DNA of 64,000 bases from Halolamina sp. CBA1230 (GTDB lineage: Archaea > Halobacteriota > Halobacteria > Halobacteriales > Haloferacaceae). Shown in pieces: positions 1 through 16,525 of the stretch. The notes under the pieces were generated by a model, which saw nothing but the letters and a program-made list of their open reading frames with translations, was not told the DNA's origin and did not search any database. The stretch is from NCBI RefSeq assembly GCF_002025255.2, contig NZ_CP054587.1, positions 1,736,001-1,800,000 on the forward strand. Reading direction: 5' to 3'. The position numbers and the translations under genes are program-made. Within the stretch, counting starts at the first letter, position 1, and the number at the start of each line of letters is the position of its first letter.

Positions 1-1635
1 GGCCGCCGTCGCATCGCCGACGTACTCTTCGGCCGTCTCGATCGCGCGCTCCTCGAACGGCGGCGTCAGCACGCGGTGGGCACAGAGACGACCAGAGGCC
101 GCGTTGTTCCCGGCGCCCGGCCACGTCGACGCCCCGCAGACGTAGAGGTCCTCGACGGGCGTGCCGTACCGCGACCAGCCGGGAAACGGCCGCCACAGGA
201 AGTTCTGGCGGAGGTGGTGACTCCCGGCGACGCTGTCGCCGCCGACGAGGTTGGGGTTCGTCGCTTCGAGGTCCGCCGGCGAGTGCACGTCACGATCCCG
301 GATTGAGTCCCGGATTCCGGGGGCATACGTCTCGAGTTTGTCGAGCACGCGCTCGGCCATCGGCTCGGCCGCCACCTCCCAGTCGGTCGCCTCGATCTCG
401 TCGGCTGCATCGCCCTCGATCTCCGAGGGGAGCGCTCGCACCTGGACCCAGAGGATATGCCCGTTGTCGGGCGTTCGGGTTTCGTCGACGGCGGTTGTCT
501 GACCGACGACGAGCAGCGGCGATTCGGGGAGCTGGCCGTTCTGGGCAGCGGTGTACGTCGCCGCCAAGTCGTCGACGCTCGGGGCGATGTGGACGTACGC
601 GAACTCCGACAGCTCCGCACCGGCCTCCCAATTCGGCAGGTCATCGAGTGCGAGATGGATCATCATCGTCCCCGGTCCGTACTCGTAGCGGTCGACTTTT
701 TCGCGGAACGACCCAGGGAGGGCGGTGTCGTCTACGAGCCGGTCGTACAGCACCGTCGGCGTCAGATTCGCGACGACCGCTTCGCGAGCGCGGACCGTCG
801 TGCCGTCGGCAAGCGTGACACCGGTCGCCCGGCCGTTCTGGGTGTCGACGGCGGTGACCTCGGCGTTCGTGCGGATCTCGCCGCCGCGGGCCTCGATAAG
901 TGTCGTCAGCGCCTCGGGGATCGCCGACGCGCCGCCGGTCGCGACGGAGATGCCCTCCGAGAGTGCAGTGAACGATTCGAGGAACGGGAACATCGCGCCG
1001 CCGGAGACGTCCGGGCCGAAGTCGAGGTGGAGTCCCCAACAGGCCATCAGCGCTTTCGCCTCCGGCGTCTCGAAGTAGGCGTCGCCGAGCTCGCGCGTCG
1101 AGCTCAGGGGGATCTGTGCGAGATCGACGAGTCCGCTGGGGCCTTCCCGCCGAGCGGCGTCGAAGAGCGTCCGGCCGGCAGCGACGGAGGGGAGTGGCTG
1201 TCCCAGCAACGGTGCGAGATTCTCGGCGAACCGGCCGAACTCCTCGTGGAGCGTCTCCCAGCCCTCGGCGTCGGCTGGGGAGTGCGCTTCGAACTCCTCA
1301 CGGGTTCGGTCGGCGTCCTGATAGACCCGCAGAGCGTCACCGCCCGGGTAGACGTTCGCGAACGGTTTGTCGGTCTGTGAGAACGCGAGCCCCGCCTCAC
1401 GGAGTTCGTCGCCGAACTCCTCGAAGACCTGCGAGCCGAGGAAGAGGTTCTGGTTCGTCGAGTGGGTGTCGTGGGTATAGCTCTCGCGAGTGAGTTCGTC
1501 GCTGCGAACCGAGCCGCCGGGCTTGTCGTTGCGTTCGAGCACGCAGACGTCCCAGCCCTCGTCGGCGAGGTACAGCGCTGCTGTGAGGCCGTTGTGTCCC
1601 GCCCCGACGACGATGGCGTCGTACGTTTCGGCCAT
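1..1635 (-). CDS. FAD-dependent oxidoreductase, phytoene desaturase-like (3' end outside window)
   Basis: The reading frame is open from an ATG at 1635 to the window edge, giving 545 codons without a stop. The N-terminus carries the dinucleotide-binding motif AIVVGAGHNGLTAALYLA (residues about 7-24), followed by a conserved stretch with GGSVRS. Near the visible C-terminus is a FAD-contact motif, GASTWPGAGNN. This layout is that of the phytoene dehydrogenase/amine oxidase superfamily (COG1233). The substrate cannot be told from sequence: a carotenoid or another polyprenoid is possible, but most haloarchaeal paralogues are uncharacterised. It is the only apparently ordinary metabolic gene at this edge; the island starts just upstream of its start codon. 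Confidence 0.8.
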   Translation of the reverse strand, partial: MAETYDAIVVGAGHNGLTAALYLADEGWDVCVLERNDKPGGSVRSDELTRESYTHDTHSTNQNLFLGSQVFEEFGDELREAGLAFSQTDKPFANVYPGGDALRVYQDADRTREEFEAHSPADAEGWETLHEEFGRFAENLAPLLGQPLPSVAAGRTLFDAARREGPSGLVDLAQIPLSSTRELGDAYFETPEAKALMACWGLHLDFGPDVSGGAMFPFLESFTALSEGISVATGGASAIPEALTTLIEARGGEIRTNAEVTAVDTQNGRATGVTLADGTTVRAREAVVANLTPTVLYDRLVDDTALPGSFREKVDRYEYGPGTMMIHLALDDLPNWEAGAELSEFAYVHIAPSVDDLAATYTAAQNGQLPESPLLVVGQTTAVDETRTPDNGHILWVQVRALPSEIEGDAADEIEATDWEVAAEPMAERVLDKLETYAPGIRDSIRDRDVHSPADLEATNPNLVGGDSVAGSHHLRQNFLWRPFPGWSRYGTPVEDLYVCGASTWPGAGNNAASGRLCAHRVLTPPFEERAIETAEEYVGDATAA

Positions 1636-1799
1636 GCCCCAAGAGTTGTTTGGACGGAGACAGAAAGCTTTCGGCGGATGCAGGTCGTCGCTGGCCCTGT
1701 CGGCAGTCGCACGGCTCGCTCAGGAGGGGCTGTCGCTCCACAATTTGTCTCACGTCTTGGGACGATCGTCGACAAGAGAACTCATTCGGACTTCCACAT

Positions 1800-2172
1800 C
1801 TGCGCCACTGGTGAGCGCCGCAAGTGGCCACGGCAGACCGTGACTCCGCCCCCAGAGCGGGTCGCCGTCGCTTCTGCCCGGAGAGTTCGTTCGCCTTCGC
1901 GTCGGTGCCGCGACCGATTTCCGTCGCCAAGCCGCGATCGTGGCGGTTCGTGGTGAGTGGAGCACCCGTTCGTTCGCACTCCTCGTCGTCGTACGCCCGC
2001 CACTCAGGCCCGTGATCGAGACGCTGTTCGTCGATGACCAGCCCACATCCTCGCAGACAGTTTCGATCGCGTTCGTGGTGACCCGGCCGTCGCACTCGGG
2101 ACACTGGTTCGCGCTCGACTCCGTTCGGACGTCTTCGTCGAAGCCGCTCTCGTAGATGTCTCTAGTTGCCAT
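1800..2172 (-). pseudogene. TFB (transcription initiation factor IIB) remnant, frameshifted and truncated
   Basis: From the ATG at 2172 the frame reads MATRDIYESGFDEDV and a first zinc pair CPEC, matching the start of the intact TFB at 16329. Near 2054 one base is missing (GAGGAT-GTGGG where GAGGATTGTGGG is expected). The second zinc pair and the segment GLVIDEQRLDHGPEW therefore continue in another frame. Similarity goes on to about the KRRR motif and fades near 1800. Both cyclin repeats are absent, so no working TFB can be made. The sequence before the start (GCGCGCCCCGCACCC) is shared with the intact gene, which suggests a duplicated TFB unit that has decayed. Confidence 0.85.
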
Positions 2173-2291
2173 CGTTCTCACCGTGTCTCGGGAACCCGCC
2201 AGTATGGCGCGCCCCGCACCCATTGAGGGGTAAATAAACACCTCGCGGAACGGCGGCGATATAGTGTCCTGCTTTGGCGAACTCAGACGTG

Positions 2292-2864
2292 CTAGTCGAT
2301 AGCTTCAGACTGGAGCCTCTCGACCATTACTGAGACGATCAACGTCTGAAACACAGCGGAAAGCGGGAACCCGATGAACACCACGACGCCTCGAAATACT
2401 ACCGTCACGAGTGGGGATGATTCGATGCCAGCTACGGAGAACAGGACAGCGAAGGGGAACGACGCCATATAGAGTACCCACACCGGAAGAAACAGCAGGA
2501 AACTGAGGGGGAGAACGATTGGTTTCCAGACCGCTTCGTAGAGTGAGAGCGTATCGAGCGCTACGAACCCAACAAACCCGACGAACACCCCCACGAGTAT
2601 GCCGCCAGCAAGGAGTGGAGGAGACCCAAGCCAGCGGACGATCCGGTGAGTTTCACCTCGCTCATCGACTCTAAAGCGCGATCCAAAACCACCCGCGACC
2701 AGCATTACTGTGAGGAGGACACCGAGTAACGTGATCATGCCTACTGCTGTCGGCTCGAAGCACAACGGCTGGCAGTACTGGCCGCCCTGGAAGAACAGAA
2801 ACGTGAGCGGATACGCGAGCAGTAAGAACGGGAGGACACATTGTCGGAGCCAGCTGCGATCCAT
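2292..2864 (-). CDS. Integral membrane protein of unknown function
   Basis: This 190-residue protein is taken from the ATG at 2864 (MDRSWLRQ). An upstream ATG at 2921 would add a polar stretch with no clear role. Five or six hydrophobic segments fill most of the chain, for example CVLPFLLLAYPLTFLFF near residue 10 and GGILVGVFVGFVGFVAL in the middle. A CQPLC pair lies in the first loop. No family is recognised. Base composition is less GC-rich than the core genes, consistent with the accessory region. Confidence 0.6.
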   Translation of the reverse strand: MDRSWLRQCVLPFLLLAYPLTFLFFQGGQYCQPLCFEPTAVGMITLLGVLLTVMLVAGGFGSRFRVDERGETHRIVRWLGSPPLLAGGILVGVFVGFVGFVALDTLSLYEAVWKPIVLPLSFLLFLPVWVLYMASFPFAVLFSVAGIESSPLVTVVFRGVVVFIGFPLSAVFQTLIVSVMVERLQSEAID

Positions 2865-2991
2865 ACCATATGTCGTCACCTCTGTATCATAAGCGTGGCT
2901 TACAAACGAACACGGTGACATTTACTGTACGAACGATTCTATACCGCTCATAGAGGTCTGACTAAACCCCGTGAATTATCGATTCGAGTCG

Positions 2992-3208
2992 CTACCTTGG
3001 CGCGCATTGATGTTGCTTAATTCGCTCTGGGAGCCCGACTTTCCCACAAACAGGACAATTTCTGCAAGGGCGTCGGCGGCAGGTCATTCCAGGCGTCCAG
3101 AGTAGCCGCTAACTGTGCCTCAACGATTGGCGAGTCGGTCGTTCGTCGAGCTTCGCGGAAATGGGTCCGAAACCGTTCACGGGCTGTGAGGCTACGATCC
3201 TCGGGCAT
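2992..3208 (-). pseudogene. Small zinc-finger protein interrupted by a frameshift
   Basis: From the ATG at 3208 the frame reads MPEDRSLTARERFRTHFREA and stays open to a stop at 3017, ending in an unlikely tail (KLSCLWESRAPRAN). Shifting by one base near 3058 reveals NCPVCGKVGLPERIKQHQC, a clean CPxC...HxxC zinc motif that runs to a stop at 2992. The natural product would be about 70 residues, with a helical N-terminus and a C-terminal zinc finger. Either the gene is broken or there is a one-base sequencing error. Its function is unknown. Confidence 0.65.
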
Positions 3209-3483
3209 TTTGCTCGGGGGCACGTTCTGGTGTGCCCTCCACCCCTCTGGGAGCCCGATAGACTCGCCCCTATCGCGAACCCCTTTCAGCGGTTTCCCGG
3301 ATAAATGTTGGACCGGTTAGTAAGGTCGTGGCTGCGCGCGCAGCGAAGTCCTCGTGAGCATCGCGAACGAGGGCACGTGAGACGAGCAACAGCGAGTCTC
3401 ACGGAGCGAGCACGGAGCGGAGGGTGGGGTGGTGGGGCTTGGGTCGGCCCGGCGCACAGCAAAAAGAAGGCTGCGCCGACTGG

Positions 3484-4383
3484 CTATGCGTCCCACCAGC
3501 GGCCGCGCTCCGGGAAGTGGATGCTACTCCATCCGGTCACGGCCACCGAGATCCGGCCCTTGTACCAGTTCGTGGCCGCTTCGTGGATACGGACCTTCTC
3601 GCCTTCCTCGATCCACGGGGCGTCCGATGCTTTCCAAACTGTCAGTTTCGTTTGCCCGCTCTCGTCCGCGATCAGCCCGACTTGCTGGATGGCCGGCGAA
3701 TCACTATCCCAGAGGGTCTCCACACGGCCTTCGATCGTGACCGTGCCGCGATCAACCTCATCGAGGGCGTCGATGGGCACCGAACCTGTGGGCGCCGTCT
3801 GCAACGCCTCGAACACCCGCACGACCGCACTCGTCATGTCCGTGCCGTCGACGACCGCGTCGGCCAGGCGTCGACTGATCGCCGCCCGCGACCAGCCATC
3901 CACCCGCGTCGCGAGTCGGTCTGCCTCCGTGTTCACTGTCGCCAGTTCATCCTGGGAGAGCTCCGCTCGGGGATCATCCCGTTCCGGGTCGGCCATCGGG
4001 TCCACGCTCGCGGCCCGCTGCTGGAACTCCCGCCGGCGCTGCTTGCTCCCTTCAGCGGCGACCTCTCGCGTGCGCTGCTCCCGACCCTCCTGCGTGCCCA
4101 GCTCGGCCTGGGTACTGATGCGCTCCAGTTCGGCTTCCCGCGCCCGAATGCGCTCCTCCTGTTCGAGGGTGACACCGTGAATCCGTTCTTGGCTCGTGTC
4201 CGCGATCCCATCCGGGTGGTTCGCATCGACCTTGGCCTGCGTCTCCTGCTCGACCGCCGCCTCGAACTCCGGCGTCTCGTCGACGACCGGGAAGCCGTCT
4301 TCATCGACCGCCTGACCGCCCGCTTTCTCGAATGCCTGTTCATCGACCGAAACGACCTTTCCGCTAGCGTTGTTACTAGACAT
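3484..4383 (-). CDS. RPA-like OB-fold single-stranded DNA-binding protein
   Basis: The product has 299 residues from the ATG at 4383. Residues about 60-130 are a charged helical region. Residues 212-285 form an OB fold of the haloarchaeal RPA type, with SPAIQQVGLIADESG, KLTVWK, PWIEEGE and ATNWYKGRISVAVTGWS. The chain ends in the aromatic tail HFPERGRWWDA. RPA proteins coat single-stranded DNA in replication and repair; mobile-element versions like this usually stand alone, as here. The leader is unusual: three perfect hairpins lie directly before the start codon and a 19-bp hairpin lies further up, so translation or RNA stability may be controlled. Confidence 0.85.
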   Translation of the reverse strand: MSSNNASGKVVSVDEQAFEKAGGQAVDEDGFPVVDETPEFEAAVEQETQAKVDANHPDGIADTSQERIHGVTLEQEERIRAREAELERISTQAELGTQEGREQRTREVAAEGSKQRRREFQQRAASVDPMADPERDDPRAELSQDELATVNTEADRLATRVDGWSRAAISRRLADAVVDGTDMTSAVVRVFEALQTAPTGSVPIDALDEVDRGTVTIEGRVETLWDSDSPAIQQVGLIADESGQTKLTVWKASDAPWIEEGEKVRIHEAATNWYKGRISVAVTGWSSIHFPERGRWWDA

Positions 4384-4384
4384 T

Positions 4385-4444
4385 GGAATCGACCTGATTC
4401 CGAAGGCGCTGACGCGCCGACTCCGCGATGCTCCTACATCGCGG
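4385..4444 (-). promoter_or_regulatory. Three consecutive perfect hairpins in the leader of the RPA-like gene
   Basis: Reading towards the gene on the minus strand there are three stems: CCGCGATG/CATCGCGG with loop TAGGAG (4444-4423), GGCGC/GCGCC with loop GTCA (4418-4405), and GGAATC/GATTCC with loop AGGTC (4401-4385). The last one ends a single base before the ATG. A Shine-Dalgarno-like AGGAG sits in the first loop. The arrangement looks like a structured 5' leader. Confidence 0.6.
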
Positions 4445-4476
4445 TTTTCCGACGACAACGACCGACAGAACCATCT

Positions 4477-4532
4477 GCGCGCTCTCGCTCGCGCCTTCGC
4501 GAGCGCCCTACCGGGCGCGAGCGAGAGCGCGC
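4477..4532. repeat. Long perfect inverted repeat (19-bp stem)
   Basis: The arms at 4477-4495 and 4514-4532 are perfectly complementary (core GCTCTCGCTCGCG), with an 18-base loop. The repeat lies about 95 bases upstream of the RPA-like start codon, outside the three small hairpins. It could be a terminator-like or leader structure on either strand. Confidence 0.6.
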
Positions 4533-4667
4533 CTGCATGAGGTGGCCCCAACCAGCACCGCGCGCCGACCCGCCCGGAGCGAGCGGCCAGCGCATTCCCC
4601 GTTCGCCGCGACGCAACTACGTCCGTCGCGGTCGGCTGTGCCGAGGTCCGTAGGACCCGAACGGGTG

Positions 4668-4958
4668 AAGCGCTGGCGTCGAGGGCACATGCATTTTAGC
4701 CCGGAACGGGCGCGGGCGGTGCGGAGAGCGCCCGCACGCCCGGAATGGTCGGTCGCGAGCGACGCGGAGGGCGGCAGCGGCGAGCGGTGCGAGCCGTATC
4801 GCATCACACTAGCCAATCGGTAGAGCTCACTTGCCCAGCAATAGCCCCCAAGGCGGGACTGAAAGGGGCCGGGGGCTCGACGTACCCCGGCGACGCAAGC
4901 ACCGCAGGAACGAGGCGCGCAGCGAGTCGCGGTCGTCGAGCCCCCGGGGGCTTTCGAG
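4668..4958 (+). repeat. Structured intergenic element, copy A
   Basis: This copy has two parts. The upstream box (4675-4785) matches the second copy at 10750-10835 almost base for base, for example GCGCCCGCACGCCCGGAATG. The core (4857-4958) begins CTGAAAGGGG and ends GGGGGCTTTCG. It contains the conserved CGCAAGCACCGCAGG and is closed by a long stem, GGGGGCTCGACG with CGTCGAGCCCCC. No protein is encoded. The rest of the gene-free stretch 4533-5030 shows nothing else that I recognise. Confidence 0.6.
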
Positions 4959-5030
4959 GAGGTCCCAATTGACGCTAACAGCTTTTTGTCTCTTCAGAAG
5001 GGGTTTACCCCAGCGCTAGCCACTAGGGAT

Positions 5031-6323
5031 ATGGCCCCGCTGACGCGTCGACAGCTCCTCCAACAGACGGCGGCCGGCGGAGGTGTTCTGGCCCTCGCCG
5101 GCTGTACTGCACCGAATCTTCCCGGGCACTCTGATGGCGAGTCGGTTCCGAAACCGTTCACGAACGACGCGTACACCGCGAGTTACACGACCGCTGGCCG
5201 CTGGCTGCAGGACGGTCACGATGGTGGCCGAACCGGAAACGCAGCCTCCATAGTCCCGCACGGCGACGTCGACGTGGCCTGGCTACGCCGTCCGGGGACT
5301 GACCCCCATAGCGCAACGGCGCCGATTGCCGGCCCGGACCAGGTCTACATCGCCTATGTTGAGTCACCGGATGATGCCGAGCACTCGGAAACCCACCTTG
5401 CAGGGTTCGACGCCGAATCCGGCGAGCAGCAACTCGACGTGGATCTCGGAATCGGCCGTGCCGTCGGCCTTGCGCTCGTCGACGAGACGCTCTTGGCCGT
5501 CACGCGCGGGGCGGACTACGAGCAGGCGACGCTGACAGGCCTTGCCCGCGACGACGGATCGACCCAGTGGACGGACACGATTCCGGACGTAACTGGCTCA
5601 CCAGCAGTTGTGGATGAGACCTGCTACTTGGCGACGCGCGACGAAGATAACGCAGTGTACGCCTACACGCTGGATGGCACCCAACAATGGCGAACCTCAA
5701 TCGAGGGGGAGTGCTACACGGCGCCCTGCGCCGACAGCGGTGGGGTCTACGTCGGATTAACTGACGGCCGTATTGCCGCACTCGATGCGACGACTGGGGA
5801 TCGACGATGGAGCAAACAGATCGCCACTCGAGACGACTGTTGTCCGGACATTCAGGGCACACCGACGGTCGCCGACGGCCGCCTGTACGTCCCGGGTATC
5901 ACCGAGGAACTCGTCGCCGCCGATACCGCCGATGGAACCGTGCTGTGGCGGACGGCGGTCGTGGACGAAGACTACGGCAACGCGATCCCGTCACCAGCCG
6001 TCACCGCCGAGACTGCGTACGTGAATACGTATCACGGAGGATTGGTTGCAATCGATATCTCGGACGGGACTGTTCGCTGGCGGTCGGCTGAAAGTGGGTA
6101 CAATCAATCCCCTGCTGTTGGTGACGGTGGCGTAGTCGTTCCACAGAATGACGCTGTCGTCGCCTTCGAGACGGGTGACCGCCAAGCGTGGACCATCGAG
6201 ATCACCGTCCCCGATATCGGAATGGCGGGCTACATCATGGACACAGACGTCGCACTAGCGCACGGTATGTGTTACGTCGGGGTTGCCGATGGGCGGATCT
6301 ACGCAATCGGGAGCAGCGAGTAG
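5031..6323 (+). CDS. Tat-exported lipoprotein with PQQ-type beta-propeller repeats
   Basis: The start is set at the ATG at 5031 because it gives a twin-arginine signal, MAPLTRRQLLQQTAAGGG, ending in the lipobox LAGC (Cys about 24). The mature chain of the 430-residue precursor is built of beta-propeller blades, each with a tryptophan docking motif such as DGSTQWTD, TTGDRRWSK, DGTVLWRTA and DGTVRWRS. This is the PQQ-binding-like repeat family (PF13360). In haloarchaea such proteins are anchored outside the membrane; most lack a known ligand and may only bind other proteins. It stands alone, with no dehydrogenase domain and no obvious partner gene. Confidence 0.85.
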   Translation: MAPLTRRQLLQQTAAGGGVLALAGCTAPNLPGHSDGESVPKPFTNDAYTASYTTAGRWLQDGHDGGRTGNAASIVPHGDVDVAWLRRPGTDPHSATAPIAGPDQVYIAYVESPDDAEHSETHLAGFDAESGEQQLDVDLGIGRAVGLALVDETLLAVTRGADYEQATLTGLARDDGSTQWTDTIPDVTGSPAVVDETCYLATRDEDNAVYAYTLDGTQQWRTSIEGECYTAPCADSGGVYVGLTDGRIAALDATTGDRRWSKQIATRDDCCPDIQGTPTVADGRLYVPGITEELVAADTADGTVLWRTAVVDEDYGNAIPSPAVTAETAYVNTYHGGLVAIDISDGTVRWRSAESGYNQSPAVGDGGVVVPQNDAVVAFETGDRQAWTIEITVPDIGMAGYIMDTDVALAHGMCYVGVADGRIYAIGSSE

Positions 6324-6330
6324 AGTACAC

Positions 6331-6492
6331 GAGTGCCTGGCAAGAAAAACGTCCACACCCCGTAATCGCCGGGCAACCGCGTATCTGTTCGAAAAGCGAG
6401 CGACCAGCGGATCGACATCCACTCCGCGGACACGGAGCGTCCGCTCGCTGGTGTCACGGCGACACCACGGCGGCACCTTGCGGGTCTGTGCG
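6331..6492 (-). ncRNA. Possible guide-RNA (omega RNA) region downstream of tnpB
   Basis: TnpB proteins are usually encoded with a guide RNA made from the 3' end of the gene and the element terminus. The 160 bases after this tnpB stop hold several short stems, including GGTGTC/GACACC (6450-6466) and CTCCG/CGGAG (6422-6437), and no ORF. The RNA and its end are inferred from the family and not visible directly. Confidence 0.3.
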
Positions 6493-7734
6493 CTATTCGT
6501 TGGGGCCCACCGTGGCCCCCTTGACGGGGAACCACTGGTGGTCGTCCCACTGGAACCGCACGGGCCGTGCCGTCGGCCTGACCTCGGTATTCGTCGCCTG
6601 TTCGAGCAGCGTCCGCGACGCGACGAGGTCGGCGTGCCCCTCGAAGCCACACGGACACCGCAGCGTCTCGCGATGCCGGCGGGTCCGTTCGCGCTCACCA
6701 CACTCCGGACACGTCTGGGAGGTCCACGCCTCGGAGGTTGATGCCACCTCGATGCCGTACTCCTCGCAGACGTTCGCGAGCTGGTCGAGACACTGCCGGT
6801 GCGCCCAGAAGGTGCGGGCTTTGAGGTTCGCCTCGACCGACCAGTACTCGCCGAGGACGCCGGTGAGGTCACCGTGATAGATGGTTTCGACGCCGTCGTC
6901 GTGGAGTCGCTCAACGAGGTCACGAAGGAGCGCGTTCACGGCGTGGTCGCGCCGGCGGGACCGCTTCCGATAGAGCCGCTTGATCCGCGTGCTGGTCTGC
7001 TGTCCAGCCGGCAGCTTCGCTTTGGCGTCGGCGATGCGCTCGGTCGTCTCACGGAACTGCCGAAACGGCTCCTGGCCGCCGTACCAGTACTGGTCGCCAG
7101 CCGTCGTCGTACACGCGACGAGGACGTTCGCGCCGATATCGAGCGCGGCGACGTCCGTCCCCGTCGGCGTCACCTGTTCCGCCTCGGGGACCGTCACCGG
7201 CTGGTGGGCCCGGTACGTCTCGTCGACGTCGTCGTAGGTGAGGTGAAGGCGACCCTGCTCGCCCTGCCAGTGCGGTTCACCGCGGATGGTAACCCGGAGC
7301 CGTTCGAACCGACTGAAACCGTACTCGTCTTTGAGCTGGCTGCCGATGGGGACCTCCAGCCGGGAGCGCTCGCCCCAGCAGATCGTGTAGGCGTCGTTGC
7401 GGATGTAGGTCCGCAGGTCGCGCCCGTCGGCTTGGTTCCCCCAATAGCCCGGCGGACTGACCTCTTGGTCGGCCTCCTCCACTGTCTCGAAGAACGACCG
7501 CCAGGCGGCGTCGTTGACGCGGGTGACCTGCTGGGTCGTCGCCGACCCCAACACGTCGACGTACTCGTCGTAGTAGCCGTCACAGTCCCAGACGCTCTCG
7601 CCGGCGAAGAACTGCTGCCGGCGCGCATACGTCAGCTGGTTCCAGAGGCTCGCTGATGCATCAAGGAGGCGCCGAAGGACATTGTCGGCTCGCTCCGATT
7701 GCGGGACGACCTCGAAGGTGTTGGTTCGTCTCAC
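6493..7734 (-). CDS. tnpB: TnpB-family protein of IS1341 type with altered RuvC-II motif
   Basis: This is a 413-residue protein starting at a GTG (7734) that overlaps the stop of the small upstream ORF. RuvC-I is present (ALDIGAN, D199). In RuvC-II the expected I-x-x-E-D-L reads IYHGDLTG, so the catalytic glutamate is replaced by Gly288. RuvC-III keeps D369 ([11 protein letters not shown]). A zinc ribbon uses C342, C345, C360 and C362. TnpB is the RNA-guided nuclease of IS200/IS605 elements. No TnpA is present here. The loss of the glutamate suggests weak or absent cleavage; I recall other haloarchaeal homologues with the same GDL reading, so it may be a family trait. It is divergent from the ABC operon at 8182. 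Confidence 0.85.
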
Positions 7735-7907
7735 CGCTCTGACTCACCCCACATCCGCGGCACGTAGCCGAGGTGTTCGACGTCGTCCGCATAGTCTCGA
7801 AGGAGCCCGATCAGGACGATTTCCGGAACACCGTTCTCGGCCTGTTCGACTAACCATTCCTCCAGTTCGACTTCGGCCTCCTCGATTTCGTTCAGTTCGA
7901 CCGACAT
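7731..7907 (-). CDS. 58-residue acidic protein overlapping tnpB
   Basis: The frame runs from the ATG at 7907 ([18 protein letters not shown]) to a TGA that overlaps the GTG start of tnpB by two bases. The protein is acidic and probably helical: an N-terminal glutamate-rich helix, then [18 protein letters not shown], and an end with YVPRMW. The tight overlap implies translational coupling, so it is probably a partner of the TnpB. No domain is recognised. It is too long and too regular in composition to be a chance frame, but its expression is inferred. Confidence 0.6.
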
Positions 7908-8147
7908 CGATCATCGCGCCTCTATCAGACGGTGCACCTGTCGCTGGCGGTGGTAACACATCTCGAATCACCTGTGTTGTGCAGGCACGACCGAACGCGC
8001 CTGCACCCTTCGCAGGCGCTCAAAAACACCACCGCACTACGCAGTCAGAATGAGGTATCGAAGACCCGTTGTAGCACCTGGTTTGAAGCGGTAAGTACTG
8101 GTCCCTGCCAAACAGCGATTTCTCCCACGGGAGTTACAAGTGAATGG

Positions 8148-8160
8148 GCTTTATCAAGCT
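8148..8160 (+). promoter_or_regulatory. Candidate TATA/BRE promoter of the ABC operon
   Basis: GGGCTTTATCAAG lies 22-34 bases before the ATG at 8182. That spacing fits a haloarchaeal TATA box for a transcript starting at or just before the start codon (leaderless). Upstream, 7998-8020 forms a perfect GCGCCTGC/GCAGGCGC hairpin of unknown role. Confidence 0.45.
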
Positions 8161-8181
8161 CTGCTAGTGATACACTGGGGT

Positions 8182-9081
8182 ATGAGGTGGTCTCCGCTTG
8201 CTCGGAAAGAATTCTACGACCACATCCAGTCGAAGGGTGTCTGGTTGCTAGGTGTCCTTCTAGTCGTCGCAAGTTTTCTGTCGCTCGGTGGCCCTCCGTA
8301 CCTCGTCACGGCCTTAAATGAGAATACGACACTGGTGGCGTTTCAAGCGCCCGTCAGCATCTTTGCCACATTTGGTGCGATCCTCCTTAGCCATAGATCG
8401 ATCAGTAGCGAACGCGCGTCAGGAAGTATCAAAGTCGTCAGTGGCATGCCGGTCCGCCGCCATCATATCCTCCTCGGGAAAATCATCGGCCAAACCGCAG
8501 TCCTCTGTGTTCCCCTCCTCCTCACCTTCCTCGTCGTCGGCGCACTCGGCGCGCTGGAATACGGGCTGTTCTCTCTGGCCAAATTCGGCCTGCTGGTGGT
8601 TGTCTCTTGCCTCTATCTGCTTCTGAACGTCTGTGTCGGCGTTTCGATTTCTGCGGCCGTAAATACCTCCGTTCAAGCAGCTACGGCGGCGTTTAGCTAT
8701 TACCTCATCTTCATCCTAGGCTGGGTGGATTTCATCATCTACCAGGTCTACACGCCACTCACGGGCGTCCAAGTCAATCCATTAAATCCGCCAGCATCGG
8801 AGAGTCTCTTTCTCCTCCACCGACTGGCTCCAGCCGGCGCGTATAACGTCCTCTTCAACTGGATTCTGGAAACGGGGAACTCAGCATCGTGGGTGCTTGG
8901 CGTCATTGCGGATCTCCAACCACAAACCCGGTCGAACGCCTTGGTTGTCGAACTCGCGTTCGAGGGAGTGGACGTCCCCGTGGTCCTCCACGAAGCGGGC
9001 GCACTCGTCATCTTCGCCGGATGGATACTCCTCCCGTTCGCGGTCGGCTACTACCGCTTCCGAGAGGCTGACCTCACATAA
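8182..9081 (+). CDS. ABC-2 type transporter permease
   Basis: The product has 299 residues from the ATG at 8182 (MRWSPLARKEFYDHIQSKGVW). That opening and about six membrane segments are typical of haloarchaeal ABC-2 permeases, including the NosY-like ones. Between the first and second segments is a cytoplasmic stretch, LSHRSISSERASGSIKVVSG, characteristic of the family. The gene is followed after 18 bases by its ATPase (9100) and forms a two-gene exporter. The cargo is unknown. An upstream in-frame ATG at 8140 exists, but the promoter position argues for 8182. Confidence 0.85.
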   Translation: MRWSPLARKEFYDHIQSKGVWLLGVLLVVASFLSLGGPPYLVTALNENTTLVAFQAPVSIFATFGAILLSHRSISSERASGSIKVVSGMPVRRHHILLGKIIGQTAVLCVPLLLTFLVVGALGALEYGLFSLAKFGLLVVVSCLYLLLNVCVGVSISAAVNTSVQAATAAFSYYLIFILGWVDFIIYQVYTPLTGVQVNPLNPPASESLFLLHRLAPAGAYNVLFNWILETGNSASWVLGVIADLQPQTRSNALVVELAFEGVDVPVVLHEAGALVIFAGWILLPFAVGYYRFREADLT

Positions 9082-9099
9082 CACGGAGCGTGTGTACTC

Positions 9100-10032
9100 A
9101 TGCCTGCAATTACCACCACCGATCTCACGAAACGGTACGACGCAGAAACCGCCGTCCACGGGTTGAACCTGAAGATTCAGGACGGCGAAGTGTACGGGTT
9201 TCTCGGACCGAATGGAGCCGGAAAATCGACGACCATCAGTCTGCTCATGGATTACGTGCGCCCAACAGAAGGATCGGCACGCATCCTCGGACTCGATCCG
9301 CGAGAGGACGTCGTCGAAATCCACCAACGCGTTGGCATCCTCCCAGACCGGTTCAGTGTCTACGACCGCTTGACGGGCCGCCGGCATCTCAACTATGTCA
9401 TCGACTCGAAGAACGCATCAGATTCTCCCGAGGACCTGCTCACTCGGGTTGGACTGGGCGATGCCATTGATCGGCAAGCCGGGGCGTACTCGAACGGGAT
9501 GCAACAGCGCCTCGGGCTTGCGATGGCACTCGTTGGCGAACCCGACCTTTTGATTCTTGATGAGCCATTCACCGGGCTTGATCCCCATGGGGCACGGACG
9601 ATCCGGGATCTCGTCTACGAGGAGAACGACCGCGGTGCGACCGTGTTCTTTTCGAGTCACGTGCTCGGCCAAGTTGAACTCGTCTGCGACCGAATCGGCA
9701 TTCTCAACCAGGGAGAGCTGATCGCCGAAGGGCGGATCGATGATCTCCGCGAGCAAGTGGACGTTGAATCGTCTATCGTCTTCACGCTCGACCAGGTTCC
9801 GGATGGGCTTGCCGACACGCTCCGTGAACAGGATGGAGTGGTGAGTGTCTCGGCGGAAGACGACGAGCTCGTCGTGGTCACACGAAGTCAAAATGCCCGA
9901 TGGCCAGTCATCCAGACGATTGAACAGACATCTGCTCCCGTTGATTCGTTCACAATGCGGGAACCGTCAATCGAAGACGTGTTTGCCGCTCATACGACGG
10001 GCAGGACTGAAACAGCGGACGAACCGTATTGA
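9100..10032 (+). CDS. ABC transporter ATP-binding protein
   Basis: This 310-residue protein has a complete nucleotide-binding domain: Walker A GPNGAGKST (residues 36-44), a signature region reading SNGMQQRL (about 131-138; the usual SGG is varied) and Walker B LLILDEP (about 150-156) followed by FTGLDP, then an H-loop in FFSSHVL. Residues 215-300 form the C-terminal extension found in ABC-2 exporters of the CcmA/NosF type. It pairs with the permease at 8182. No substrate-binding protein is nearby, in line with an exporter or a membrane-modifying system. Confidence 0.9.
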   Translation: MPAITTTDLTKRYDAETAVHGLNLKIQDGEVYGFLGPNGAGKSTTISLLMDYVRPTEGSARILGLDPREDVVEIHQRVGILPDRFSVYDRLTGRRHLNYVIDSKNASDSPEDLLTRVGLGDAIDRQAGAYSNGMQQRLGLAMALVGEPDLLILDEPFTGLDPHGARTIRDLVYEENDRGATVFFSSHVLGQVELVCDRIGILNQGELIAEGRIDDLREQVDVESSIVFTLDQVPDGLADTLREQDGVVSVSAEDDELVVVTRSQNARWPVIQTIEQTSAPVDSFTMREPSIEDVFAAHTTGRTETADEPY

Positions 10033-10141
10033 ACGGCGTGTACTTCGTACCTTGATCCAGCAGTAATCCACCTTGGTACTGTTTTCAATAAGTATAGGTG
10101 AAACACCAATCGCTAACGATAGGCAACGTGTGTGGCATGGT

Positions 10142-10552
10142 TTACTCACATCCGTAGGAGGTGTGTTCGTGATGGAGGGTGCTTGCACCCAGGTAGAATT
10201 GGAGGCGGAGACATTCTTTAGATTCTGAAATGAGGCTTTGCGTATCAACATTGGCAGAGTCCCCGTCAACGTCAACTTGGATTGTGTACTGTCCTGGGCT
10301 AGAGAGCGGTGATTCGAAATCAGCGTAGGCCTTACCCTCACCCGCTGCCCCAAGTTCACGTATCTCCTCGAAAAGAACCTCGTCCTCCTCCAGTATCCGT
10401 ACTGTGAATACGTACCCCGTCTCTCGCCGGTGGTTTTCGAGACGAATGTGCTCGATGACTGCCTTTGGTTCAGTGTCATCTGTGAGGCAGCCGGCCAATC
10501 CACCTATTGCTGCGATACCACCGCTCCGAAGAAACGTCCGACGAGAGGGCAT
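10142..10552 (-). CDS. Tat-exported lipoprotein, unknown function
   Basis: The 136-residue precursor starts at 10552 (MPSRRTFLRSGG; a second ATG directly precedes it). It has a twin-arginine motif and lipobox LAGC, so the mature chain begins near Cys 22. The rest is a single small beta-rich domain that looks immunoglobulin-like, with strands around YVFTVRI and YTIQVDVDGDS. Two cysteines (in KECLR and at the very end, YGCE) may form a disulfide. It is convergent with the ABC ATPase. The function is unknown. Confidence 0.7.
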   Translation of the reverse strand: MPSRRTFLRSGGIAAIGGLAGCLTDDTEPKAVIEHIRLENHRRETGYVFTVRILEEDEVLFEEIRELGAAGEGKAYADFESPLSSPGQYTIQVDVDGDSANVDTQSLISESKECLRLQFYLGASTLHHEHTSYGCE

Positions 10553-10752
10553 CATCGTTCTGTTGATTCTATATATTCATCTGCTTCGGAAAAATAGTAG
10601 CGATAGGTTCGCACATCTACTTACCAGATGATTCGGTAATTTCCACGACGAAAATAACCATTTCGTGCGCAATTCTTTGGCAGCTTGACCAGAACTCTCC
10701 CAGTCGGAGGTGAGCAGCCACGCCGCGCAACCTCTCGCGCTTTCCCGCTGGC

Positions 10753-11196
10753 GCCGAGGGCACATGCACTTGAGCCCGGACCGGGCGCGGGCGGTGCGGA
10801 GAGCGCCCGCACGCCCGGAATGGTCGGTCGCGAGCGAAGCGAGGCGCGACCGCAGGGAGCGCCTCGACGGCGAGCGGGGAGCGAAGCGACCCGCGAGCAA
10901 GCGGAGGGCGGCAGCGGCGAGCGGGGCGGGCCGTCACGGACACACCTGTTCAACCGGCTACGTCGCTCGGTGAGCCATCTACCGTCCTGGCGGACTCAGA
11001 AAGGGCGAGGCCGCCTCGGCCACCGGGAGACGACGTCTCCCGAGCTCGCGGCGCGAAGCGCCGCGAACGTCCCCTGCCCCCGCAAGCACCGCAGGTACGA
11101 GGCGCACAGCGGCGTTCTCGTGGGCGTAGCGAACGAGAGCCAGCGAGACGCAGTCTCGCGCGGTCGCGGGATGCCGAGCGGCCGAGGGCTTTCGGG
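10753..11196 (+). repeat. Structured intergenic element, copy B (left direct repeat)
   Basis: This is a full-length copy. The upstream box (10753-10960) is followed by the core 10993-11196, which opens CTCAGAAAGGG and closes GAGGGCTTTCGG. About 110 bases (10962-11072) are identical to 12230-12340 in copy C. Internal stems include GGGAGACG/CGTCTCCC and GGCGC/GCGCC, and the core carries CGCAAGCACCGCAGG. It has no ORF of credible composition. Together with copy C it brackets the UPF0175/PIN module. Confidence 0.75.
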
Positions 11197-11279
11197 ATTG
11201 GTTCACCCATCCTGACCAGCGTACGTTCTCGTATGTGCTGGCCTGGGAACCACTCCTGTGCTATCATGAAGACGGCTGG

Positions 11280-11810
11280 TTATTCTTCGACGTCGTCAGG
11301 AAGAGCCGCAGTCACGCTGTCGACCGGTGCGTAGTAGTTCCGCTCCTCGATCCAGGTCGTGAGCCACTCATCCGCCGTCTCGACGGTCAGTTCCTCGAGA
11401 ACGACGCCGCGAACCAGCAGGCCGATTGACCCGGTGAGTGCAACGTCGTAGTCGGCCGCGAGCGTGCGGGCGTTCCCGTCATCCGTCACGAGCGTCCCAC
11501 CAGCCGTGTGTGCAGCCACGAGCGATTCGGCTTCGCCGGGATCGAGACGGGTCTGAACCGCCGGATAGTCCTGCTGGAGTTGCTCCGGTGCGGTCTCAGC
11601 GATCTCGATCCCTCCTGAGTCAAGCACGTCGAGTGCGTGCTCTAGATACGCGTAGCCGACCTCACGGCCCTGCTCCAGTTCGGTTCGGACAGCGGGAACA
11701 GTCTGGAGGGCATCGAGCGTCGTCGTCAGCCAGGTAACGGAGTCTGTGTTCGCGTAGTTGCTGAGCACTGTCGCATCGAGCACAACAGGCCGCGAGAACG
11801 ACTCGCTCAT
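11280..11810 (-). CDS. PIN-domain protein, likely toxin of a UPF0175 module
   Basis: The protein has 176 residues. Its acidic residues are placed as in PIN nucleases: VVLDATVLSNYAN (D12), LDPGEAESLVAAH in the middle and LVTDDGNARTLA further on. It resembles the DUF3368-type PIN proteins. The start overlaps the end of the upstream antitoxin-like gene by four bases (ATGA), a classical toxin-antitoxin layout. PIN toxins cut RNA. No activity is proved here. The pair is the only coding content between the repeat copies B and C. Confidence 0.75.
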   Translation of the reverse strand: MSESFSRPVVLDATVLSNYANTDSVTWLTTTLDALQTVPAVRTELEQGREVGYAYLEHALDVLDSGGIEIAETAPEQLQQDYPAVQTRLDPGEAESLVAAHTAGGTLVTDDGNARTLAADYDVALTGSIGLLVRGVVLEELTVETADEWLTTWIEERNYYAPVDSVTAALPDDVEE

Positions 11811-12037
11811 TCAAGATCGAGCGCCACGTCGACCTCATCTTCGAGTTCGTCCATGGATTGCGGGCCGAGCTGCAGCTCAACACCGGCTTCTTGGAGGATT
11901 TCCTCCATTTCCCAGCGAGTGACACCGGTGCGCTCGGCGGCCTTGCCGAGCGAGATCTCGCCGAGGACGTAGAGCCCGATCGTGGTCGCGAGCTCCTGTT
12001 TGTCCTCGACGGCGTTACGGCGGCGATCAGTAGCCAT
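11807..12037 (-). CDS. UPF0175 family small protein, likely antitoxin
   Basis: This is a 76-residue acidic protein. The middle, LGEISLGKAAERTGVTRWEMEEILQEAGVEL, is the helix-turn-helix-like signature of the UPF0175 family, which commonly precedes DUF3368/PIN genes and acts as the presumed DNA-binding antitoxin. It is translationally coupled to the PIN gene through an ATGA overlap. The segment upstream of its ATG runs straight into repeat copy C at about 12090, leaving only some 50 bases for a promoter. Confidence 0.75.
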   Translation of the reverse strand: MATDRRRNAVEDKQELATTIGLYVLGEISLGKAAERTGVTRWEMEEILQEAGVELQLGPQSMDELEDEVDVALDLE

Positions 12038-12089
12038 GGAGTCTACCTGAGCAAAGGGGCGGTGCGCTCATTAATGTGTCTCCAAAGGG

Positions 12090-12464
12090 GTCGGTCGCGA
12101 GCGAAGCGAGGCGCGACCGCAGGGAGCGCCTCGACGGCGAGCGGGAAGCGAAGCGACCCGCGAGCAAGCGGAGGGCGGCACGCGGCGAGCGGGGCGGGCC
12201 GGTACGTACGCACCTGTCTAGCCGTCCACGTCGCTCGGTGAGCCATCTACCGTCCTGGCGGACTCAGAAAGGGCGAGGCCGCCTCGGCCACCGGGAGACG
12301 ACGTCTCCCGAGCTCGCGGCGCGAAGCGCCGCGAACGTCCCCCGACCCCGCAAGCACCGCAGGCACGAGGCGCGCAGCGGCGTTCTCGTGAGCGCAGCGA
12401 ACGAGGGCCAGCGAGACCGAGTCTCGCGTGGTCGCGGGATGCCGAGCGGCCGAGGGCTTTCGGA
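12090..12464 (+). repeat. Structured intergenic element, copy C (right direct repeat)
   Basis: This copy starts within the upstream box (the equivalent of 10823 in copy B) and continues through the whole core (12259-12464). It is the same orientation as copy B and identical to it for about 110 bases. Differences elsewhere are point changes and small indels. With copy B it makes a pair of direct repeats about 1.27 kb apart. Confidence 0.75.
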
Positions 12465-12510
12465 TGTCGTCGCCGGCGCTGGGTGGTCGGCGTCGCTACT
12501 CGGAGGCCGG

Positions 12511-13080
12511 TTACTCGTCGAGACGGTGGAGCAATTGTGTGACGTACGGACTGTGCTCCCAGCTCCGATGCGGGCTAATCGTCGTGATCAGCGTTCGAGC
12601 CGCTTCGTGGCTCAGATGCCCGTTCCGGGCGTAGTCGACGATGAGCCGCGGCGTCGGGACGATCCGTGGCCCTTGCAGTACGGCGTGAATCAGTGGGAAG
12701 TTCGTTCCGCCGAACTCGTCAGTGAGAAACCCGTCGACATCAAGCGCGTTCGCGAGGACGATCCCGTCGGTTTCGCCGTCGTCGAGCCCGAACGTTGGCC
12801 GGGTGTCCGGCGTCTCGTCGCGTTCGTAGGGGTCGTCAACCGTGTAGTAGTCGCGGGCCGCAAGGACGTTACTCGCGGCGGCCCCGTGGATATCCTGATA
12901 CTGCGTGATGTCACGGAGTTCTGTAACGACTTCCGACGGCACGACCACGTCACACGAGGTGAGCAGATACTGGAACGGGTCCGGAGTGTCAGTGTCGACA
13001 GCTGCATCGGCTCGGGGCACCGCGAGACTGACGAGCGCGCTGGTGTCGGCGACGGCCGTTCGCAACTGCCGGCCGCTCAT
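12511..13080 (-). CDS. PIN-like domain protein, likely toxin of an RHH module
   Basis: The protein has 189 residues. Acidic positions match a PIN fold: AVADTSALVSLAV (D12), PSEVVTELRDI, GLDDGETDGIVLAN and GFLTDEFGGTNF. It is clearly paralogous to the protein at 13903-14415 (shared TSALVSL, VVPxxVxxEL, DGExxxxxLAN and the DEF segment). The ATG overlaps the stop of the RHH gene by four bases. It is larger than standard VapC toxins, with an insert around residues 75-95. It probably cuts RNA when freed from its partner (inference from the family). Confidence 0.75.
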   Translation of the reverse strand: MSGRQLRTAVADTSALVSLAVPRADAAVDTDTPDPFQYLLTSCDVVVPSEVVTELRDITQYQDIHGAAASNVLAARDYYTVDDPYERDETPDTRPTFGLDDGETDGIVLANALDVDGFLTDEFGGTNFPLIHAVLQGPRIVPTPRLIVDYARNGHLSHEAARTLITTISPHRSWEHSPYVTQLLHRLDE

Positions 13081-13445
13081 CCCTCGTCGTCGGCTGCGGT
13101 ATCGACCGCCGTCGCGTCACCATCGTAGACGTCGACGTCGTCGGGGGCCGCAAGATCGAGCGGCTCGTCCTCGAGATCCGCTTTGAGAAGCCGGAGTCGC
13201 TGGGCGGTCTCGGCGCCCACCAGTTGCTTCACCGTCTCGAACTCGAGTTGGTTGTCGTAGTACTTCGTCGCGACGAGTTCTTGGAACGTCTCGCTGTCGG
13301 CGGTGTCTTCGATGTACTCACGCATCGCCTCGATGAGCAGATCCGTCCGATCCGTGTCGTAGAGCTCCGCGATCGCATCCAGCCGGTCGACGAGATACTC
13401 CGGCGACTGGAAATGGACCCGCCGCGGGTCATCGCTTGCGCTCAT
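13077..13445 (-). CDS. Ribbon-helix-helix protein, likely antitoxin
   Basis: The product has 122 residues from the ATG at 13445; an upstream in-frame ATG would run through the operator and is unlikely. RRVHFQSPEYLVDRLDAIAE and the following TDLLIEAMREYIED form a ribbon-helix-helix. The rest is an acidic tail, rich in D at the end, that probably holds the toxin. It is paralogous to the gene at 14416-14718. A 21-bp perfect palindrome sits three bases upstream of the start and is a likely operator for autoregulation. Confidence 0.75.
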   Translation of the reverse strand: MSASDDPRRVHFQSPEYLVDRLDAIAELYDTDRTDLLIEAMREYIEDTADSETFQELVATKYYDNQLEFETVKQLVGAETAQRLRLLKADLEDEPLDLAAPDDVDVYDGDATAVDTAADDEG

Positions 13446-13447
13446 TG

Positions 13448-13468
13448 TATGTGCAAATTTTGCACATA
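13448..13468. promoter_or_regulatory. 21-bp perfect palindrome, candidate RHH operator
   Basis: TATGTGCAAA and its exact complement flank one central T. The site abuts the start codon of the RHH gene. Further TGCACA half-sites lie near 13488 and 13501, as expected for cooperative binding of a dimeric repressor. On the minus strand a TATA-like GTTATACG overlaps the region around 13475. Confidence 0.65.
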
Positions 13469-13541
13469 GGCGTATAACGGTTTCGGCGTATGCACAGAGC
13501 TTGCACATTAAAACCCGTAGAACAGGAAGGGTTTACGTCAC

Positions 13542-13871
13542 TCAGTCGTCGTCCTGTGCGTTCAGTTCGTCGAGGAACTGGCCAGCGGTCGTCCCTATAC
13601 GAACACCGTCGACGTTGCGTACCTCGAGGTCCTGGGTGGCGGTCCGGAAGGGCATGGCGTCGACAAGGACGCGGTGAATGACGGTCCGGATAGGGGCGGT
13701 ACCGTACCTGTCGACGACAGTCGCCATCAGTACGTCGAGGTGCCCGTCGTGGTGATCCGTCCGGGGATGCTGTGCACGTTCGAGGACGAGTTCGACCACG
13801 TCATCAACTGATGCGTGTTCAGGATTCTTCGTTCGTTCACGAACGTCGTAGAGAGCGTCGTTATCGGCCAT
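13542..13871 (-). CDS. Hypothetical acidic protein between two RHH/PIN modules
   Basis: This is a 109-residue protein with no recognised domain. The N-terminal part is helical (SVDDVVELVLERAQHPR), followed by a second helical segment (APIRTVIHRVLVDAM) and a short strand-rich end. It lies between the two paralogous RHH/PIN pairs on the same strand. It has its own spacing on both sides (70 bases downstream of the operator region and 31 bases from the next gene), so it may be separately transcribed. An imperfect AAACCC/GGGTTT hairpin follows at about 13510-13533. Confidence 0.5.
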   Translation of the reverse strand: MADNDALYDVRERTKNPEHASVDDVVELVLERAQHPRTDHHDGHLDVLMATVVDRYGTAPIRTVIHRVLVDAMPFRTATQDLEVRNVDGVRIGTTAGQFLDELNAQDDD

Positions 13872-13902
13872 TCCTGTTCACTTCAAAGAATTCTCCACGG
13901 TG

Positions 13903-14415
13903 TCAGGGCTCCGTGAGCAATGAGCGAGCTCGCTGCACGTAACCGTTCGCGTCCCAGCTACGGACGTCACTGATCGCATCGAGGAGCAACCGCGCTTCAG
14001 CAGCTGATAGGTGCTCAGCTCGAACGAGAACCGAGAGCAGCGTTGGTGTCGTGACGAGTCGGGTATCAGCGAGTGAGGCGTGGATCAAGCCAAGTTGGGT
14101 GAATTCGTCACAGAGGAAGAGCGCAGCATTGAGATCGTTCGCGAGCGTGACCGCCGCGTTCTCACCGTCATCGAGCGGAAACTCGGCATCGAGGTCGACC
14201 GACTGTGTCGTGAATGACTCCGCTTGGTCGAGGACGGCGGACGCGGCGTGCCCGTGGACATCCTCGTAGGAGGCGATCTCCTGGAGTTCATCGATGACCG
14301 CTGTTGGGACGACGACCTCGTACCGGGAGAGACAAAGTGCGAGTGGATCGGGATCGTCGTCAGTAACGCTCCCCAGACTCACGAGGGCGGAGGCGTCTGC
14401 GATAAGCTGCGGCAT
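13903..14415 (-). CDS. PIN-like domain protein, second RHH module
   Basis: This 170-residue paralogue of the 12511-13080 product has the acidic set LIADASALVSLGS (D7), PTAVIDELQEI, LDDGENAAVTLAND and LFLCDEFTQLG. The order and spacing fit a PIN nuclease. Its start immediately follows the stop of the RHH gene (14416), so the two are coupled. Sequence divergence between the two PIN copies is large outside the motifs, suggesting old duplication or separate arrival, with pairs kept insulated from one another. Confidence 0.75.
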   Translation of the reverse strand: MPQLIADASALVSLGSVTDDDPDPLALCLSRYEVVVPTAVIDELQEIASYEDVHGHAASAVLDQAESFTTQSVDLDAEFPLDDGENAAVTLANDLNAALFLCDEFTQLGLIHASLADTRLVTTPTLLSVLVRAEHLSAAEARLLLDAISDVRSWDANGYVQRARSLLTEP

Positions 14416-14718
14416 CTATGCGTCGGCGACCTCGTCGATGAAGTCCTCGTCCAACTGCTGTTTCAACACGCGGAGGTTTGCCGCTTCCTCGGCGCCGACG
14501 AGCGCTTTGAGTTGCTCGAAGGAGATCTCGTCGTCGTAGTAGGCGGCGGCGATTTCCTGGGTTAGCGCATCGTCGTGCGTGGCCTCCTGTAGATACTCCC
14601 GGAGCGCGGTCACAAGGATGTTCGTCCGGTCTTCGCCGAGTACCTCTGCTAGGGCGTCGGTCCGGTCAATAAGCCGGTGTGGCGCCCGGAACTGGACGCG
14701 TTTCTTATCGCTACTCAT
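14416..14718 (-). CDS. Ribbon-helix-helix protein, second module, likely antitoxin
   Basis: This is a 100-residue protein. KRVQFRAPHRLIDRTDALAE and TNILVTALREYLQE form the ribbon-helix-helix, and the C-terminal part has the YYDDEISFEQLKALVGAEEA segment shared with the first module (YYDNQLEFETVKQLVGAETA). Instead of the palindrome of the first module, two direct repeats lie just upstream, which would separate the regulation of the two pairs. Confidence 0.75.
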   Translation of the reverse strand: MSSDKKRVQFRAPHRLIDRTDALAEVLGEDRTNILVTALREYLQEATHDDALTQEIAAAYYDDEISFEQLKALVGAEEAANLRVLKQQLDEDFIDEVADA

Positions 14719-14719
14719 T

Positions 14720-14775
14720 ATGTGTGCGTTGTGAGCTATCCCACTTAGCCCTTCTCATGTGTACAACGTGAGCTA
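14720..14775. promoter_or_regulatory. Two 19-bp direct repeats upstream of the second RHH gene
   Basis: ATGTGTGCGTTGTGAGCTA (14720-14738) and ATGTGTACAACGTGAGCTA (14757-14775) differ at four central positions and are 37 bases apart in start position. They directly precede the RHH start codon, so they are likely operator sites. Confidence 0.5.
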
Positions 14776-14789
14776 CGCTCAGCCGGGCA

Positions 14790-16329: not shown

Positions 16330-16525
16330 TGGGCTCACCTGTACGAGGTCGCGCCACGTCGGCGCGCCCCGCACCCCTCTCGGGGCCGAAAAACCGCCGC
16401 GTGCCGATCGCCTCACTGGTCGGGTAGAGTAGCTGCGAACTGAGTGCGGGAAAGAATATACGGCGGGTCGGCCGTAATTAGCCGCCGAATCGGACGCCGA
16501 GCTGCGCGTCCGGCAACACGAACGT

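What the first reader, a model, noticed from the sequence alone, without database searches (positions are those of the whole stretch)
6331..8182. TnpB without the RuvC-II glutamate, coupled to a 58-residue ORF, beside an ABC operon
The motif I-x-x-E-D-L is IYHGDLTG here, while the two other TnpBs in the window keep E278 and E282. The start codon overlaps the stop of a small acidic ORF. TnpB-like nuclease-dead repressors (TldR) are known to use guides to silence nearby genes, including ABC transporter genes, and here an ABC exporter promoter lies 275 bases from the small ORF. The sequence could thus encode an RNA-guided repressor with a protein partner.
Basis: partly seen in the sequence, partly recalled or inferred. 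Interest (0 to 1): 0.7.

Follow-up and report, generated by a model that had tools for sequence, protein, structure and literature searches.

The report
Fixed-guide TnpB aimed at plasmid leaders
A haloarchaeal TnpB that looks as if it lost a catalytic residue actually carries it at a second known position, travels with a conserved 58-residue protein, and holds a conserved 16-letter guide matching a conserved site on haloarchaeal plasmids, so it looks like an RNA-guided selfish cutter rather than a silencer of the neighbouring ABC genes.

Summary
The sequence observation is right, but its reading as a dead nuclease is not. The RuvC-II glutamate is absent (G288), yet E335, six residues before the zinc finger, is the published alternative glutamate (Ealt). 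In 46 distinct TnpBs the swap is perfect: 11 E..P, 35 G..E, none with both or neither. The 58-residue ORF is a real gene (median pairwise dN/dS 0.14) beside every 72-94% relative and one 60% clade; distant homologues occur without TnpB. The ABC operon is not a conserved neighbour and holds no guide match.

New result: TnpA-bearing relatives (about 60% identical) have TTAC at the left end and a variable guide after the RNA scaffold. In the focal clade the 16 nt at that position are conserved (94% over nine unrelated flanks) and match the leader of plasmid RPA-like/TFB genes. Five relatives sit in that leader exactly at the TAM/guide junction. A sister clade with the same small ORF has another conserved guide, matching a plasmid gene; the copy downstream of each element is altered in the guide-matching region (5/5; p=2.6e-4).

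Best model: a TnpA-less, fixed-guide TnpB nuclease that homes into or attacks rival plasmids while linked to uncuttable alleles. Cleavage, guide expression and the small protein's role are inferred.

The parts
6493..7734 (-). tnpB, 413 aa, alternative-glutamate type (D199, G288, E335, D369)
   Evidence: Pfam OrfB_IS605 and Cas12f1-like_TNB, NCBIfam guided_TnpB, residues
7731..7907 (-). conserved 58-aa acidic companion ORF, 4-nt overlap with tnpB
   Evidence: homologues upstream of all 72-94% relatives, 39/292 class genomes, dN/dS 0.14, three-helix AF2 model pLDDT 90
6412..6520 (-). omegaRNA scaffold/right end, ending in GAGTGGATGTCGA (6412-6424)
   Evidence: conserved in 22 elements with a covarying hairpin; homologous to GGAGGATGTCAA of TnpA-bearing relatives. 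Start inferred, no RNA data
6396..6411 (-). conserved 16-nt guide TCCGCTGGTCGCTCGC
   Evidence: 94% identity over nine unrelated flanks against 25% in TnpA-bearing relatives
7997..8019 (-). left-end palindrome GCGCCTGCGAAGGGTGCAGGCGC
   Evidence: conserved upstream of the small ORF in nearly all relatives printed; coordinates
8091..8094 (-). TTAC at the outer left boundary, the TAM-like tetramer of TnpA-bearing relatives
4579..4594 (-). guide-like site in the leader of the linked RPA-like gene (GGAA|TGCGCTGGCCGCTCGC, 2 mismatches)
4384..4830 (-). structured leader of the RPA-like gene (approximate extent)
   Evidence: homologous leaders in 72/148 family genomes
3484..4383 (-). RPA-like OB-fold gene, 299 aa
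   Evidence: weak OB-fold matches; homologue annotated 'replication factor A' on pHAR02

Best explanation
This is a TnpA-less IS200/IS605-type element encoding an alternative-glutamate TnpB and a conserved 58-aa helper of unknown role. Its guide is no longer taken from each new flank: a 16-nt guide is retained and matches a conserved site in the leader of RPA-like and TFB genes on haloarchaeal plasmids. The proposed action is RNA-guided cleavage of plasmids whose leader has a TAM (TTAC-like) plus the target. That would favour copying of the element into that site (homing) or loss of the rival plasmid, while the element's own replicon carries leader alleles that cannot be cut. Shown: intact Ealt triad by sequence, conserved guide, target match, insertions at the exact junction. 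Inferred: cleavage, guide boundary, TAM, homing or competition. Unknown: the job of the small protein, perhaps control of TnpB translation or activity.
For: Ealt swap perfect in 46/46 TnpBs, triad invariant, Ealt after the strand 329-334 in the AF2 model (low confidence there), Foldseek matches to TnpB, Cas12f and Fanzor2. Rearranged RuvC-II TnpBs can cut: one RII-r5 ortholog active (PMC10278001). Guide conservation against variable guides in TnpA-bearing relatives. In the 3.46-Mb genome the guide occurs within one mismatch only at itself and, 16/16, in a plasmid TFB leader. Five elements split that leader at the TAM/guide junction with 96-100% identical left arms. Sister clade: a second conserved guide matching a plasmid gene, with linked copies all of the YF allele, 5/5 against 2 YF:20 YY elsewhere, p=2.6e-4. 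No linked leader has TTAC, 0/18. The TTAC/TTTC difference is compensated on the other arm of the leader stem in 12/12 and 26/26 leaders.
Against: No cleavage or RNA data. The right flank beyond the 16 nt is not leader sequence even in the inserted copies, so simple homing does not explain the whole structure. Several linked leaders match 16/16 next to TTTC, so everything rests on TTTC not being a TAM, and the TAM is inferred from relatives about 60% identical. The excess of TAM-bearing leaders in genomes without the TnpB is significant per leader (p=0.003), but not per genome (p=0.06), and not for TTAC alone (p=0.15). Linked alleles are not phylogenetically independent.
Confidence: 0.58

Rival explanations
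1. It is an RNA-guided repressor (works like a TldR) of the RPA/TFB leader, binding without cutting, perhaps with the 58-aa protein as partner.
For: Conserved guide, loss of TnpA, linked target 0-2 mismatches on the same strand 320-2300 nt downstream in many loci, non-transposon companion gene; perfect-match targets persist in the same cell.
Against: Complete D-Ealt-D triad under purifying selection; in the sister clade the linked copy is altered in the guide-matching region; linked leaders lack the inferred TAM.
Confidence: 0.2
2. The 16 nt is a structural extension of the right end needed for transposition, and the leader resemblance reflects common ancestry or shared palindromes rather than targeting.
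For: The 16-mer can pair with upstream right-end sequence in the RNAalifold consensus, and it moves with the element.
Against: Predicted pairs of the 16-mer are mostly invariant, with compensatory changes at two long-range pairs only; relatives end at the same motif with no such extension; the sister clade has an unrelated conserved 16-mer matching its own plasmid target.
Confidence: 0.15
3. An ordinary TnpB whose guide is conserved only because the element recently spread with plasmid DNA, with no function for the guide or the small ORF.
For: Several loci share larger plasmid neighbourhoods.
Against: Small-ORF dS 0.23-1.14 against the window copy while the guide stays 94% identical across nine unrelated flanks.
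Confidence: 0.07

Closest known systems
Alternative-glutamate (Ealt, RuvC-II-rearranged) TnpBs and Fanzors
   Same: E six residues before the zinc finger replaces the canonical RuvC-II glutamate; D at RuvC-I and RuvC-III kept
   Different: RuvC-I is DIG, not the DPG of Fanzors and pro-Fanzors; second zinc knuckle is CxC; a 58-aa companion; a conserved guide
TldR (TnpB-like nuclease-dead repressors)
   Same: no TnpA, conserved guide, non-transposon companion gene, target outside the element
   Different: catalytic triad complete; linked target copies altered in the sister clade
IS200/IS605 TnpB plasmid gene drive (Mears et al., PMC11870625)
   Same: TnpB cutting element-free plasmids would favour plasmids carrying the element
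   Different: there the guide records each insertion site; here the guide is retained and matches one conserved plasmid site
Free-standing homing endonuclease genes linked to a resistant allele (e.g. phage T4 Seg enzymes; from general knowledge)
   Same: proposed logic: nuclease gene beside an uncuttable version of its target
   Different: RNA-guided TnpB instead of a protein-specified site

Membership tests
Ealt / RuvC-II-rearranged TnpB | Glu six residues upstream of the first zinc-finger Cys and no canonical Glu | tested here: met
   E335, C342, G288; pattern as in PMC10711439
Ealt / RuvC-II-rearranged TnpB | RNA-guided DNA cleavage | not testable with these tools
   needs biochemistry; one RII-r5 relative is active (PMC10278001)
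Fanzor / pro-Fanzor | DPG at RuvC-I together with Ealt | tested here: not met
   LDIGAN at 198-203; fingerprint from PMC10711439
TldR | RuvC nuclease inactivated | tested here: not met
   D199, E335, D369 in 20/20
TldR | association with non-transposon genes | tested here: met
   58-aa ORF beside every close relative
TldR | guide directs repression of a promoter | tested here: inconclusive
   guide matches a gene leader; repression not testable
IS200/IS605 element | TnpB with 3' omegaRNA region and TAM-like left flank | tested here: met
IS200/IS605 element | own TnpA | tested here: not met
   the position is taken by the small ORF; TnpA seen only in the 60% relatives
Site-specific homing element | conserved insertion site with empty alleles | tested here: inconclusive
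   five copies in the leader and empty leaders exist, but right flanks are rearranged and most copies lie elsewhere

The most novel reading that the evidence does not exclude
A class of archaeal TnpB elements has frozen its guide: it no longer re-learns each new flank but keeps a guide against a conserved plasmid control region or gene, is linked to uncuttable versions of that target, and uses a dedicated 58-aa protein, so that TnpB serves as an RNA-guided weapon or homing nuclease in plasmid-plasmid competition.
Probability: 0.45. Interest if true: 0.85.

Novelty: new variant of a known kind. Interest (0 to 1): 0.7.

Why it matters
TnpB guides are normally rewritten at each insertion. Two related clades with conserved guides, matched plasmid targets, linked altered targets and a shared small partner would be a natural intermediate between transposon TnpB and dedicated RNA-guided interference, reached without losing the nuclease. 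The alleles needed to test it (TTAC, TTTC, ATAT, GGAA leaders; YY and YF gene alleles) already exist. It also warns that a missing RuvC-II glutamate alone does not make a TldR.

Tried and rejected
Nuclease-dead TldR reading: rejected because Ealt is present and conserved. ABC promoter as target: no guide match in 8100-8182 and no conserved adjacency. A guide starting after the 16 nt (TTTTCGAACAG...): its only other window match, at 10357, has 3 mismatches, and homology to TnpA-bearing relatives places the boundary earlier. Small ORF as a chance frame: rejected by conservation and dN/dS, with the other two frames showing pN/pS of 1.9 and 3.4. Pfam, NCBIfam and PHROGs searches of the small ORF: nothing. 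Foldseek of its model: no match. Rfam: no match. (degenerate pattern) did not list the element's own copy, so counts rest. The papers that define TldR and the RuvC-II-rearranged clades were not held; those points rest on papers citing them.

Full report
Observation. The features described are present: tnpB at 6493-7734 (-), a 58-aa ORF at 7731-7907 (-) with a 4-nt overlap, G288 in the RuvC-II motif, and an ABC permease ATG at 8182. The protein is a TnpB by Pfam and NCBIfam.

The missing glutamate. Yoon et al. (PMC10711439) describe TnpBs and Fanzors in which the RuvC2 glutamate lies six residues before the zinc finger. Here E335 precedes C342 by exactly that spacing. I compared 46 distinct TnpBs from this genome and its relatives: 11 have Glu at the canonical place and Pro at the alternative place, 35 have Gly and Glu, and none has both or neither. 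D199, G288, E335 and D369 are invariant in 20 close relatives. In the AF2 model E335 directly follows the strand 329-334, although local confidence is low; Xu et al. (PMC11423790) place the Fanzor glutamate in the loop between the fifth strand and the TNB domain. Nety et al. (PMC10278001) report one active TnpB of a RuvC-II-rearranged clade. The claim that this protein is nuclease-dead is therefore not supported. Cleavage itself was not tested.

The small ORF. It lies upstream of every relative of 72-94% identity, at a gap of -4, about 90 or about 198 nt, and beside a 60% clade. It evolves under purifying selection (median pairwise dN/dS 0.14; 0.16 for tnpB), and other frames do not. It is found in 39 of 292 class genomes. 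About 31 places are next to tnpB; about 16 distant homologues are not, and lie in accessory regions beside genes that look like ArdC-type peptidases, PIN toxins and nucleotidyltransferase/HEPN pairs (names from sequence inspection). So the family exists outside the TnpB pairing. It models as three helices with no solved relative.

The ABC operon. The flank 8099-8700 has no comparable match beside the element in 148 family genomes. The guide has no match within three mismatches in 8100-8182.

Where the guide begins. In 13 TnpA-bearing relatives the left flank ends in TTAC and the right end is GGGAGGATGTCAA followed by unrelated sequence. The homologous motif in the focal clade is GAGTGGATGTCGA, and the next 16 nt are conserved: 94% mean identity across nine unrelated flanks, falling to 24-35% after position 20, against 25% throughout in the TnpA-bearing group. 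The boundary is inferred from homology. The scaffold hairpin has compensatory changes; pairs predicted for the 16-mer are mostly invariant.

What it matches. Across the genome the exact guide occurs within one mismatch only at itself and, 16/16, in the leader of a plasmid TFB gene (G000:C3:47612). The control pattern also gave one hit at one mismatch, so the strength lies in the exact match and its place. The genome has four such leaders, three before RPA-like genes and one before TFB, and 72 of 148 family genomes have one. In 89 leaders the matching segment is nearly invariant from position 4 on, apart from position 9, while the TAM side and positions 1-3 fall into discrete alleles: TTTC 26, GGAA 22, ATAT 15, TTAC 12, GCTT 12, ATAC 2. 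The left arm as a whole varies between alleles, so variation there is not proof of escape by itself; but TTAC and TTTC leaders share one arm type, and the difference is matched on the opposite arm of a stem in all 38 cases.

Insertions at the target. L033, L034, L035, L037 and L055 carry the leader's left arm (96-100% over 160 nt) up to the base before the guide-matching segment, then the element, whose right end continues with the guide. An empty leader is seen in this genome (L146). Beyond the 16 nt the right flank is not leader, which simple insertion does not explain.

Linked leaders. Of 18 leaders beside an element or its remnant, none has TTAC. Leaders with a WTAY flank are 3/28 in TnpB-positive and 26/61 in TnpB-negative genomes (p=0.003), but by genome 3/15 against 20/39 (p=0.06); for TTAC alone p=0.15.

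A sister clade. Five elements with the same small ORF (L056, L121/L143, L122/L144, L123, L125) have another conserved guide, TACGTTACGTTTGACGA, which reads as Y V T F D E with mostly synonymous variation and corresponds to a plasmid gene found in 119 of 292 genomes. The element's left side carries the start of that gene. The copy downstream of each of the five elements has Phe for Tyr in the guide-matching region, 5/5, against 2 YF, 20 YY and 3 YH elsewhere (Fisher p=2.6e-4 for YF against YY). These five are related, so the p-value overstates independence, and the other copies were a sample of the best matches.

Interpretation. Conserved guides, targets on plasmids, insertion at the target and linked altered targets together suggest a fixed-guide TnpB that homes into or attacks rival plasmids. 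Mears et al. (PMC11870625) show TnpB acting as a gene drive in plasmids when its guide records the insertion site. A repressor remains possible: several linked leaders match 16/16 beside TTTC, and if TTTC were an accepted TAM the protein could bind there. I could not find this arrangement in the papers searched, but several defining papers were not held.

Noticed in passing
L287 (pNRC200 of Halobacterium salinarum NRC-1), 3133-4475: The 58-aa ORF (VNG_RS14310) stands 20 nt before an unrelated canonical-Glu TnpB and upstream of an RPA-like gene, as if the original tnpB had been replaced.
   Followed up: partly
L002, L003, L004, upstream of tnpB: Own-genome Ealt TnpBs without the companion have a divergent 47-48 aa ORF starting 50-59 nt upstream that may be a ribbon-helix-helix protein.
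   Followed up: no
89 leaders, e.g. L175-L178: A long conserved leader with a large palindrome (GCGCGCTCTCGCTCGCGCCC...) precedes RPA-like and TFB genes on haloarchaeal plasmids; function unknown.
   Followed up: partly
L003, 3' end of tnpB: The guide position of this own-genome TnpB holds the start of another TnpB gene (ATGGAAGTGCGGCGAACC), suggesting insertion into or targeting of a rival TnpB.
   Followed up: no
window about 1-20000: RPA-like gene, TFB, PIN-type genes, a TrwB-like ATPase and leader repeats suggest an integrated plasmid in the main chromosome.
   Followed up: no
L073 (G102:C1:2220215): A decayed copy of the element with internal deletion lies beside the same beta-propeller gene as in the window.
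   Followed up: partly
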